DNA of 64,000 nt, taken from Nautilus pompilius. Taxonomy: Eukaryota; Mollusca; Cephalopoda; Nautilida; Nautilidae. How positions within the stretch are numbered: position 1 is the first letter of the stretch; each line of letters opens with the position of its first letter. The stretch spans positions 164,001 to 228,000 of the forward strand of contig JACATO010000688.1 in the NCBI GenBank assembly GCA_018389105.1. Reading direction: 5' to 3'. Of this stretch, positions 1,604 to 29,769 are shown piece by piece. The translations under genes and the position numbers were made by a program. The notes below the pieces were generated by a model that saw nothing but the letters and a program-made list of their open reading frames with translations, did no database searches and was not told the origin of the DNA.

Positions 1604-2594
1604 ATGGGGAAGACTGCTGACTTGACAGTTGTCCAGAAGACACTCACTGACATCCTTCACGAGGAGGGTAAGCCACAGAAGGTCATTGCTGAAAGGGCTG
1701 GCTGTTCGCAGAGTGCTGTATCAAAGCATATTCATGGAAAGTTGACTGGAAGGGGAAAAGTGTGGTAGGAAAAGGTGCATAAGCAAGAGGGATGACCGCA
1801 GCCTTGAGAGGATCGTCAAGCAAAGCTGATTCAAGAACTTGCGGGAGCTTCACAAGGAGTGGACTGAGGCTGGAGTCAGTGCATCAAGAGCCACCACGCA
1901 CAGATGTGTCCAGGAAATGGGCTACAAGTGTCGCATTCCTAGTGTCAAGTCACTCCTGAACCAGAGACAACGTCAGAAGCGTCTTACCTGGGCTAAGGAG
2001 AAAAAGAACTGGACCGTTGCTCAGTGGTCCAAAGTCCTCTTTTCAGATGAGAGTAAATTTTGCATGTCATTTGGAAATCAAGGTCCCACAGTCTGGAGGA
2101 AGAGTGGAGAGGCACAGAATCCAAGTTGCCTGAAGTCCAGTGTGAAGTTTCCACAGACAGTGATGATTTGGGGTGCCATGTCATCTGTTGGTGTCGGTCC
2201 ACTGTTTTATCAAGTCCAAAGTCAATGCAGCCGTCTACCAGGAGATTTTAGAGCAGTTCATGTTTCTGTCTGCTGACAAGCTGATTTCCTTTTCCAACAG
2301 GACTTGGCACCTGCCCACAGTGCCAAAACTACTAGTAACTGGTTTGCTGACCATGGTATTACTATGCTTGACTGGCCAGCCAACTCGCCTGACCTGAACC
2401 CCATAGATTCTCTATGGGGTATTGTCAAGAGGAAGATGAGAGACACCAGACCCAACAACACAGATGAGCTGAAGGCCACTATCAAAGCAACCTGGGCTTC
2501 CATAACACCTCAGCAGTGCCACAGGCTGATCGCCTCCATGCCACGCCGCATTGATGCAGTGATTCATGCAAAAGGAGCCCCGACTAAGTACTGA
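1604..2594 (+). pseudogene. Broken Tc1 transposase (DD34E type)
   Basis: The protein would be a Tc1-family DDE transposase of about 340 residues. ATG at 1604 begins MGKTADLTVVQKTL and reads through the first helix-turn-helix (GCSQSAVSKHIHGKLTGR). The frame is lost at about 1755-1765, and a TGA at 1827-1829 stands where the family usually has arginine. From 1839 the second DNA-binding region and the first catalytic Asp (LFSDESKF) are intact up to about 2200. Another frame break at about 2205 is followed by a deletion of about a dozen bases near 2282 that restores the frame. The second catalytic Asp (codon 2301-2303, QQDLAPAHS) and the third acidic position (codon 2406-2408) are separated by 34 residues. 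That third residue is Asp (NPIDSLWG) where the family has Glu. The end is ...GAPTKY then TGA at 2592-2594. Confidence 0.92.
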
Positions 2595-23329: not shown

Positions 23330-23800
23330 ATATCACTTGCTTTAATGAAGTACTGCTGTGTTTTTTGTTTTTCCTATAAAAATCCTTTCAGGGCAGGTAA
23401 CTTCTGTTCACCAAATGTACAGCCAGAGTTATTTTCCTTTATAGCTGCAGTTCGGCTTGCAAAGCTTCAGTTAAAATGTTATTCGCTAGTACCCCACAAA
23501 ATCTGTGGTTTGTTTCTCACACAAAACCAAGGAAACGATTAGGTTTAAAAATCATTAGAATTTTTTTTTTTTTTGCAGTACTTTTAGATTCTAAAATAAA
23601 CAAGTGTACAAAAACACGATTCTAAAACTGGCCGAGATCTGAACATAGTGAAATAATCTAAAAAAAGTTATTCTTATTCTTCACAGAGACAGACAAAAAT
23701 CTTATGGCTGCTTTAGTGTTATCATACTTAGAATATTATTTTTTTTTCTGTTTGGAAAAAAAAGGGGGGGCCTATATCAGCATGTGTGTGTGTGGGTGGA

Positions 23801-23880
23801 GCGAGAGAGCGAGAGAGAGAGAGATGGAGAGAGAGGGGGGAGAGAGGGGAGAGGAGGAGAGGAGATGGAGGAGAGAGGAG

Positions 23881-23925
<45 letters not shown>

Positions 23926-24305
23926 GAGGAGAGAGAGAGAGAGAGAGAGAGGGAGATGGAGAGAGAGAGAGAGGAGAGAGAGAGGAGAGAAGAGAGAGGA
24001 GGAGAGAGAGAGTGGAGAGAGAGAGAGATGGAGGAGAGCGGGAGAGGGAGTGGAGAGAGATGGAGGAGAGAGAGAGAGAAAGAGATGGAGAGCGGAGAGG
24101 GAGAGATGGAGAGAGGAGAGGGAGAGATGGAGAGAGAGGAGAGAGAGGGAGGAGAGAGAGAGAGAGAGGGAGAGAGGAGAGAGAGAGAGAGACAGAGATG
24201 AGAGACGAGAGAGAGAGCGAGAGAGGAGAGGAGAGATGGAGAGAAGAGCGAGAGATGGCAGAGGAGAGAGGGAGGAGGGACGAGAGAGAAGAGAGAGAGA
24301 GAGAG
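23801..24305 (+). repeat. Long (GA)n low-complexity tract
   Basis: About 500 bases of almost pure purine sequence made of GA dinucleotides, broken by GG steps and by recurrent GATGGA words. It is preceded by a short (TG)n run at 23782-23796. Because it lacks stop codons it is open in several frames (Glu/Arg-rich on plus, Ser/Leu-rich on minus, up to about 230 codons), but these are composition artefacts and not genes. Similar tracts occur at 28373-28680 and 50256-50314. Long GA·TC tracts can form triplex (H-DNA) structures and are known to be difficult for sequencing. Confidence 0.93.
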
Positions 24306-28248: not shown

Positions 28249-28680
28249 GAGAGAGAGAGAGAGAGAGAAGAGTAATGAAGAAACTACAAAAACAGTGGAA
28301 TAGGTGCAAACAGAACGAAAAAAAATGGTAGAAATGAAGAATGACAATTTAAAAAAAGGAATAGCAGACACACAGAGAGAGAGAGACATGGAGAGAGAAA
28401 GAGGATGGAGAGAGAGGGAGAGAAAAGAGAGAGATGGAGAGAAAGAGAGAGAGGTAATAGAGAAAGAGAGAGAGAGAGAGGTAGAGAGAAAGAAGAGAGA
28501 GGAGAGAGGGAGAGAGAGAGGAGAGAAAGAGAGAGATGAAGAGAAAGAGAGAGAGACGAGCGGAGTGAGAGAAAGAGAGAGAGAGAGAGAGGTAAGCGAA
28601 ATAGAGAGATCGAGAGAGGAGCGGAGAGAAGAGAGAGCTGGAGAGAAAGAGAGGTCGAAGCGAGAGAGAGAGGAGATTGC
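28249..28680 (+). repeat. (GA)n low-complexity tract, interrupted
   Basis: GA repeats begin at 28249-28270, pause for about 100 bases, then continue from 28373 to about 28680 with interruptions such as GAAAGAG, GGTAATAG and GATGGAG. Towards the right C residues begin to appear (GAGCGGAGAG, GGTCGAAGCGAG) before the sequence turns into the GC-rich block at 28681. Open frames here (197 codons plus, 169 minus) are composition artefacts. Confidence 0.9.
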
Positions 28681-29512
28681 GCGGGCGGGAGGAAGAGGAG
28701 ATGGCGAGGCGCGGTGCGCTCCGCGGGCGCGCGGAGCGCGAGAGAGGAGGGAGCAGCGGGCGAGCGCTCTGGGCTACTCTCTGGCGCTCGCTCGCGAGCG
28801 CGCTGGAGCTAGGAGGAGCGAGAGAGGGCGAGCTCCATCGCGAGCGGAGCGCCGGCATGCGCGAGAGCTGGCTCGCGCGCTGGGGCTCGAAGCCTGAAAA
28901 CGCGACTCGCTGCGCGAGCGCGGGCCGCCCGAGCGCGAGCAGCTGGAGAGAGCGCGCGCGGACAGAGCTCGCTCTCGAGCGCCTCCGCTATCGCGATGGC
29001 GCTCGCGGAGAGCCCGAGCGAGATCTGGCCTCGCGCGCGGGCGCTCTTGGCGAGAGTGGCGCTCACAGCGCGATCGCCGCTGGGGGCATCGAGCGGGGAC
29101 GCGCTGGGCGCGCTTTCTCGCCCGCGAGCTCGATGCGCGCGGTGCTGCTCTGGATCGCTCGCGGGCTCGCTCGCGCTGGCTCTCTGCCTCGGGCTCGCGA
29201 GCTGCGCGCGGCCTGGCGCTCCCGCGTAGCGAGCGCTCTGGCGCGCTCTCTTTCTGGCCGCGCGCTCGGGCTCGCCCGCCTCGCTCTCTTGTCGCGAGCT
29301 CTGGCTCTCCCTCTCTCGCGCGCGGCTGGCTCTCGCGCGGGCTCGCCCCGCGGGCCTCCCGCTCCTTTCGTCTGGCGCGCGACGCTCGCGCTCTTTCTCT
29401 CCCGCCGCGCGCTCGGCTCTCCGCGCGCGCGGGCCTCCCGCTCGCGCCGCTGGCTCTCGCTCTGGCGCCCTCGCTCGCAGCTCTTGGCCTTCCTGCTTCT
29501 GGGAGCTCTTTC
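28681..29512. other. CpG-saturated low-complexity block
   Basis: About 830 bases of extreme GC content built from words such as GAGCGCG, GCGCTCGC, CTCGCGAG and GGCTCTCGC, in an otherwise A/T-rich window. The left part is GA+CG rich and nearly lacks T. The right part is CT+CG rich and nearly lacks A. The block therefore drifts from purine-rich to pyrimidine-rich and is full of short CGCG palindromes. Long open frames (293 codons plus; 267 and 254 codons minus) exist on both strands because the word set contains few stops, so they are not evidence of genes. It may be a composite (GA)n...(TC)n inverted structure or a sequencing/consensus artefact. Confidence 0.85.
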
Positions 29513-29553
29513 GGGGGGGGGGAGTGGGAGGGGGGGAGGGGGGGGGGGGGGGG
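29513..29553 (+). repeat. Poly-G run
   Basis: About forty bases of almost pure G with a few A and T interruptions end the GC-rich block. Normal A/T-rich sequence resumes abruptly at 29554 (TATAACCCAGGG). Runs of this kind can form G-quadruplexes and are also typical of base-calling failure. Confidence 0.85.
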
Positions 29554-29769
29554 TATAACCCAGGGAGTTCCATGCAACTTACTTTTGTTTTGGTAAATAA
29601 ATGATGGGCCTATAATTTAATCCCAGGTATAAATTAAACATCAAATAGTTCAAAAGAAAATCCCAGAAGATCGATACATTAGGTTGATTCTTTTCAGTGT
29701 TGCTCATCAAGACCCGTGTTTATTTGAATAAACTACCCACTTACAGTCTGTCTAAATTGATCACCTATT

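What the first reader, a model, noticed from the sequence alone, without database searches (positions are those of the whole stretch)
28249..29553. GA repeat turns into a CpG-saturated block with purine-to-pyrimidine drift and a poly-G end
From left to right the sequence goes GA-rich, then GA+CG with almost no T, then CT+CG with almost no A, then poly-G, and then abruptly back to normal A/T-rich DNA at 29554. The window is otherwise about two-thirds A/T. One explanation is a real head-to-head (GA)n...(TC)n structure that has mutated. Another is a failed consensus over a GA·TC tract, where reads of opposite strands are merged; long-read methods are known to struggle with GA/TC tracts. A normal CpG-island promoter would not show this word monotony or the drift in A and T.
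Basis: partly seen in the sequence, partly recalled or inferred. Interest (0 to 1): 0.7.

Follow-up and report, generated by a model that had tools for sequence, protein, structure and literature searches.

The report
Misread GA repeat, not real DNA
A long GA repeat in a fish-like genome appears to turn into CG-rich and then CT-rich DNA, but the change is best explained as sequencing error that builds up along the repeat (A read as C, G read as T), and the same pattern sits at other GA repeats of the same assembly.

Summary
The block is there: clean (GA)n with ATGG interruptions (28374-28676), a CpG-saturated stretch (28677-29512), a G-run (29513-29553), then normal DNA. It is no CpG island or gene, and a head-to-head GA/TC array fits poorly. 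Throughout, bases keep alternating between {G,T} and {A,C} (0.75-0.80; shuffles 0.50) while composition drifts from GA through GC towards CT: what a GA register gives if A is replaced by C and G by T, base by base. Twelve further loci of the same assembly show this build. After 150-350 bp of clean GA, A/(A+C) falls smoothly from 0.98 to 0.05-0.14 and T/(G+T) rises from 0.07 to about 0.58, while the G+T share stays 0.50-0.58. All 9 loci not picked for direction decay towards the 3' end of the GA strand. Best reading: artefact, long reads whose calls drift inside GA tracts (swaps within two channel pairs), kept in the assembly; the platform is not proven. Against: one locus present twice, with SNP-different flanks, has nearly identical decayed sequence in both copies, which needs a shared source read or real DNA; and three other GA tracts of the contig are clean.

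The parts
28251..28270 (+). short GA run before the main tract
   Evidence: read directly
28374..28676 (+). zone I: clean GA tract with ATGG interruptions
   Evidence: tandem repeat finder, period 2; A .47 G .46, alternation .80
28677..29103 (+). zone II: CpG-saturated continuation of the GA register; fitted A->C .62, G->T .16
   Evidence: alternation .76, z 10; channel fit on 28677-29100; break points 28704 and 29104
29104..29512 (+). zone III: CT/CG-rich continuation; fitted A->C .87, G->T .37; TGG kept, mostly as CTGG
   Evidence: alternation .75, z 10; TGG 13, CCA 0; channel fit on 29101-29512
29513..29553 (+). G-run at the 3' end, meaning unclear (real G-run or misread flank)
   Evidence: read directly; tandem repeat finder
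23799..24305 (+). second GA tract of the window, 507 bp, clean to its end; used as control
   Evidence: read in full; C .02, 9 CpG

Best explanation
The locus is a long (GA)n microsatellite with ATGG interruptions. Past about 28.68 kb it is misreported: the true GA register continues, but A is reported as C and G as T, base by base and more often with distance. The swaps stay inside the pairs {A,C} and {G,T}, as for an optical sequencer in which the members of each pair share a laser or colour channel. Inferred mechanism: a real-time single-molecule base caller (PacBio type) that keeps re-estimating signal levels. In a tract with only G and A pulses the levels for C and T have no support, so each colour's single population is split between two labels; calls recover after the tract. 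Such reads, few because GA tracts lose coverage, were kept in the assembly, perhaps as gap fill. Shown: register conservation, fitted swap direction, polarity, onset profile, presence at 13 loci. Inferred: that it is an artefact, the platform, adaptive drift, single-read fill.
For: Register kept through all zones. Channel fit: swaps out of A and G go mainly A->C and G->T, other swaps at most .08; successive calls nearly independent, lag correlations -.06 to .10. Of the models simulated, only register-keeping A->C/G->T or its TC-strand mirror gives the observed alternation and CG+GC share, and TGG/CCA favours the GA strand. TGG 12 and 13 in zones II and III against CCA 1 and 0; above an order-1 chain (4.5 and 4.6 expected, reached in .002 and .001 of runs); CTGG replaces ATGG (before TGG: A in 67 of 79 in clean parts, C in 73 of 116 in decayed parts). 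Same build at 12 further loci, polarity 9 of 9 in loci not picked for direction, smooth pooled onset. Exit zones like flank DNA with A called C in 3 of 10 blocks looked at. Illumina HiSeq swaps A/C and G/T most, pairs sharing a laser (PMC3334598, passage); HiFi coverage fails at A/G- or T/C-rich tracts (PMC7545148, PMC10234299, passages).
Against: L034 and L035, with flanks differing at 8 in 5003 and 16 in 4969 bases, share most of the decayed sequence exactly, so independent noisy reads are excluded there. Three other GA tracts in 278 kb of the contig are clean, the 507-bp one to its very end, so distance alone does not cause decay. The simple channel model underpredicts TGG (1.8 and 1.2% against 2.8 and 3.2%) and overpredicts TA+AT in the window. 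Against plain shuffles TGG is only 1.3-1.4 SD high. The matrix fit alone cannot tell GA from TC strand. Seven of ten blocks show no recoded exit zone. The directional pattern also has 36 hits in reversed order, not examined. PacBio's colour pairing is recalled, not found in the library. No raw reads seen.
Confidence: 0.7

Rival explanations
1. An artefact of another kind gives the same recoding: another optical platform, a fixed (not adaptive) calling bias, or a consensus or polishing step acting on few reads.
For: Platform and pipeline are unknown; the patches that differ between L034 and L035 show some later local rewriting.
Against: A fixed bias would not give a smooth onset over some hundred bases; simulated strand mixes fail.
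Confidence: 0.2
2. Real DNA: polar GA arrays whose 3' parts have taken A->C and G->T transversions in register at many loci, by an unknown mutational process.
For: The decayed part is identical in most of its length in two copies with SNP-different flanks.
Against: Per-base independence, smooth onset after 150-350 bp at 13 loci and an almost constant G+T share; whole patches differ while the rest is identical; exit zones that look like ordinary flank with A called C in 3 of 10. From recall, vertebrate mutation favours transitions and CpG decay.
Confidence: 0.04
3. Consensus merged from reads of opposite strands.
For: GA and CT words in one block.
Against: Register, CG+GC share, TGG/CCA and lag statistics do not fit the simulated merges.
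Confidence: 0.03
4. A real head-to-head (GA)n...(TC)n array, mutated in the middle.
For: L034 and L042 come close to plain CT.
Against: Second part keeps TGG, not CCA; in the window G stays at 0.33 in the right part; only weak inverted repeats between the halves (at most 32 nt, 73-81% complementary).
Confidence: 0.02
5. A CpG island or GC-rich gene or contaminant.
For: CpG observed/expected up to about 1.35 and GC up to 76% in 500-bp windows; frames of 90-317 codons, stop to stop, are open across it.
Against: No Pfam match in 5 frames across it, no plasmid match, no Rfam match in the window; the register, which a 64% GC phage lacks.
Confidence: 0.01

Closest known systems
PacBio HiFi coverage loss at GA/TC tracts (HiCanu, PMC7545148; gaps study, PMC10234299; T2T-CHM13, PMC9186530; passages seen)
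   Same: Same kind of tract and trouble for long reads
   Different: Those passages describe missing coverage, gaps and wrong repeat counts, not a register-keeping recoding of bases
Illumina same-laser swaps A/C and G/T (PMC3334598, passage)
   Same: Same base pairs swapped
   Different: Short reads with scattered errors; cannot by themselves yield decayed stretches of up to about 1.8 kb with a smooth onset
Nanopore miscalls of telomere repeats (mentioned in PMC13195165, passage)
   Same: A repeat is systematically called as something else
   Different: Other repeat and platform; that passage says the miscalls are not seen in PacBio reads. From recall, nanopore substitutions lean to transitions, which would not keep this register

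Membership tests
Vertebrate CpG island / promoter | High GC and CpG observed/expected | tested here: met
   GC up to 76%, CpG o/e up to about 1.35 in 500-bp windows
Vertebrate CpG island / promoter | Sequence without a dinucleotide register of a neighbouring microsatellite | tested here: not met
   Alternation .76 against .50 in shuffles, as in the adjoining GA tract; high-GC phage control at most .594
Head-to-head (GA)n/(TC)n array | Second arm with reverse-complement interruptions (CCAT) | tested here: not met
   Zones II and III: TGG 12 and 13, CCA 1 and 0; 13 loci: 117 against 10
Opposite-strand consensus merge | Mixed registers or runs of GA and TC | tested here: not met
   Simulations against observed values
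Same-channel base-call swaps (A/C, G/T) | Substitutions confined to the two pairs | tested here: met
   Channel fit; register
Same-channel base-call swaps (A/C, G/T) | Reads came from an optical platform with that pairing | not testable with these tools
   Assembly unnamed, no raw reads; PacBio pairing recalled only; searches listed nothing on it
HiFi GA/TC coverage-loss site | Low or one-sided read coverage | not testable with these tools
   No reads available

The most novel reading that the evidence does not exclude
The blocks are real: GA arrays at many loci of this fish-like genome undergo a polar, register-keeping A->C and G->T conversion that starts 150-350 bp into the array and runs to its 3' end, a mutational or editing process without a precedent known to me.
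Probability: 0.04. Interest if true: 0.95.

Novelty: not a real feature. Interest (0 to 1): 0.4.

Why it matters
The blocks look like CpG islands with open reading frames and could be annotated as promoters, genes or GC-rich islands. They have a sequence-only signature ({G,T}/{A,C} alternation above about 0.7 with high CpG, next to a GA tract), so long-read assemblies can be screened for it without raw data. If the adaptive-caller idea is right, it also offers a testable cause for part of the known trouble with GA/TC tracts. In the unlikely case that the blocks are real, they would be a new kind of mutation.

Tried and rejected
Gene, CpG island or contaminant: no Pfam, plasmid or Rfam match. 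Strand merge and inverted array: see the rivals. Transitions, A>T/G>C swaps and uniform noise: do not keep the register. TA/AT depletion in the window (14 against 27 expected): not seen in most of the other blocks, dropped as a clue. A second copy of a flank with a different fill: the 1201-bp stretch left of the block and the exit flank of L028 gave only themselves. The exit flanks of L026 and L025, the pattern GTATTGACGTCATATC, the reversed directional pattern and the block itself as query did not complete, so the source of the patches in L034 and the nature of the 36 reversed hits stay open. The raw hit count (4388) is no measure of enrichment: the tool's control, the pattern read backwards, has 4690 hits, as that pattern has the same register; what counts is the clustering and what the fetched loci show. 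L034 and L035: hoped for as independent copies; the near identity does not separate a shared read from real DNA. Paper searches listed no title on this recoding; I saw passages of seven papers, so this is no proof of absence. L032, fetched as a candidate, has no GA block and is not among the 13. In one search the span of L042 was overestimated; one search uses block ends set by hand and lengths typed.

Full report
What is there. The window lies in contig C664 (496,853 bases) of an unnamed 727.6-Mb assembly in 2558 contigs. Two adjoining open frames at 1830-2594 match Tc1-type transposase domains; that and the look of the DNA suggest a fish, which is inference. Around the finding the order is: a short GA run, about 100 bp of ordinary DNA, a GA tract with ATGG interruptions (28374-28676), a CpG-saturated stretch (28677-29512), a G-run (29513-29553) and ordinary DNA. 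The best composition break points are 28704, 29104 and 29514.

The register. In zones I, II and III the share of neighbouring bases on different sides of the split {G,T}/{A,C} is .80.76 and .75, against .50 in shuffles; purine/pyrimidine alternation is at its shuffled level in all three, and strong/weak alternation is high in zone I but only slightly raised in II and III (z 2.4 and 2.0). So the GA beat goes on, with A or C on one beat and G or T on the other. A hidden GA tract seen through a free 4x4 substitution matrix is fitted by A->C .62 and G->T .16 in zone II and .87 and .37 in zone III, with other swaps out of A and G at most .08; its likelihood is about that of a free order-1 chain. 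Successive calls are nearly independent (lag correlations -.06 to .10). Simulated strand mixes, transitions, A>T/G>C swaps and noise do not reproduce the statistics. The A->C/G->T model reproduces composition and alternation roughly but underpredicts TGG and overpredicts TA+AT.

The strand. The matrix fit cannot tell GA from TC (difference at most 1 log unit). The interruption words favour GA: clean tracts carry ATGG, and zones II and III carry TGG 12 and 13 times (8 and 12 of them CTGG) with CCA 1 and 0. That is above an order-1 chain (4.5 and 4.6) but only slightly above plain shuffles (8.7 and 9.4, SD 2.5). In simulation the TC-strand mirror predicts TGG .2-.3% and CCA 1.5-2.1%; observed TGG is 2.8-3.2% and CCA 0-.24%. 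Over 13 loci it is 117 TGG against 10 CCA, although loss of A also lowers CCA. Three of the four CCA of L034 lie at or in patches where its copy L035, with one CCA, reads otherwise.

More than one locus. A 14-base pattern of the mush has 4388 hits in the genome. The control, the pattern read backwards, has 4690, which is expected as it keeps the register, so the count proves nothing; but many of the 100 listed hits are clustered. I fetched nine places from that list, mostly clusters (several isolated (CG)7-type hits on it were not fetched): eight are GA-led blocks of the same build, one (L032) is not. With the window, nine of nine decay towards the 3' end of the GA strand. A directional pattern, (GA)7 then mush 250-279 bases on, has 124 hits against 36 in reversed order (hits, not loci; the reversed ones were not examined). 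Four more loci came from that directional list (L034/L035, L040, L041, L042) and add nothing on direction. Pooled over the 13 loci, A/(A+C) runs .93.98.97.88.75.63.50.32 in steps of 50 bp and then .30 down to .05-.14; T/(G+T) goes from .07 to about .58; the G+T share stays .50-.58. The clean lead is 150-350 bp (mean 253) and does not clearly scale with the decayed length (Spearman .25, p .41). How many blocks the genome holds was not counted.

Exit. In three of ten blocks looked at (L026, L027, L028, zones chosen by eye) the 80-190 bp after the tract have lost the register but not the shortage of A: A/(A+C) .07-.12 against .65 in normal window DNA, and C-runs of 4 or more at 3.3-5.8 per 100 bp, where normal DNA has .09 and normal DNA with A called C at 80-90% would have 2.8-3.4. 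The other seven show no such zone. The window ends in a G-run, which I cannot decode.

Evidence that cuts the other way. L034 and L035, 601 kb apart on C2008, have flanks with 8 mismatches in 5003 and 16 in 4969 aligned bases, and the nearest flank differences lie about 0.46 and 0.27 kb from the block. Yet the decayed block is identical but for four patches and three one-base indels. If each copy had its own noisy read they should differ throughout. I take it that both were filled from the same read or consensus and patched differently later; real DNA shared by two alleles or duplicates would also give the identity, though not readily the patches. Further, in 278 kb of C664 a scan found seven stretches of high alternation: this block, three GA tracts without decay (one is the 507-bp tract of this window, read in full) and three short others. 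So decay is no automatic result of distance; tracts that better reads cover may have been called correctly.

How it most likely works. Swaps within {A,C} and {G,T} are the mark of optical sequencing in which those pairs share a laser (Illumina HiSeq: PMC3334598, passage). Short reads alone cannot make a 1.8-kb decayed stretch, and HiFi reads are known to lose coverage at A/G- or T/C-rich tracts (PMC7545148, PMC10234299, PMC9186530, PMC9668749; passages). From recall, PacBio instruments also read G/T and A/C in two colours; three library searches gave nothing to confirm it. A caller that keeps updating its signal levels would, in a tract with only G and A, lose the reference for C and T and split each colour into two labels. 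That predicts in-pair swaps, per-base independence, a relaxation over some hundred bases and a lag at the exit. The first three are seen; the lag is seen in three of ten blocks. It does not explain by itself the clean 507-bp tract. I put about 0.93 on an artefact of some kind and about 0.5 on this cause.

Verdict. A well-defined, recurrent artefact with a sequence-only signature; worth a note to assemblers and annotators, not a biological feature.

Noticed in passing
L034 and L035 (G000:C2008:589801-593200 and 1191301-1194700): The same locus occurs twice, 601 kb apart on one contig, with 0.16-0.3% flank mismatches: retained second haplotype or recent duplication. In patches L034 has GACGT/CCAT words that L035 lacks.
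   Followed up: partly
window 1830-2594 (+): Two adjoining open frames matching Tc1/Tc3-type transposase domains (PF01498, PF13358).
   Followed up: no
window 23799-24305; C664:73481-74060; C664:270601-270960: Three GA tracts of the same contig without decay; why these are called cleanly and the longer one not is open.
   Followed up: partly
window 29513-29553: 41-base G-run closing the block; could be a real G-run or a misread flank.
   Followed up: no
L026:1712-1865, L028:1441-1520, L027:691-880 (minus strand): C-rich exit zones that look like ordinary flank DNA with A called C.
   Followed up: partly
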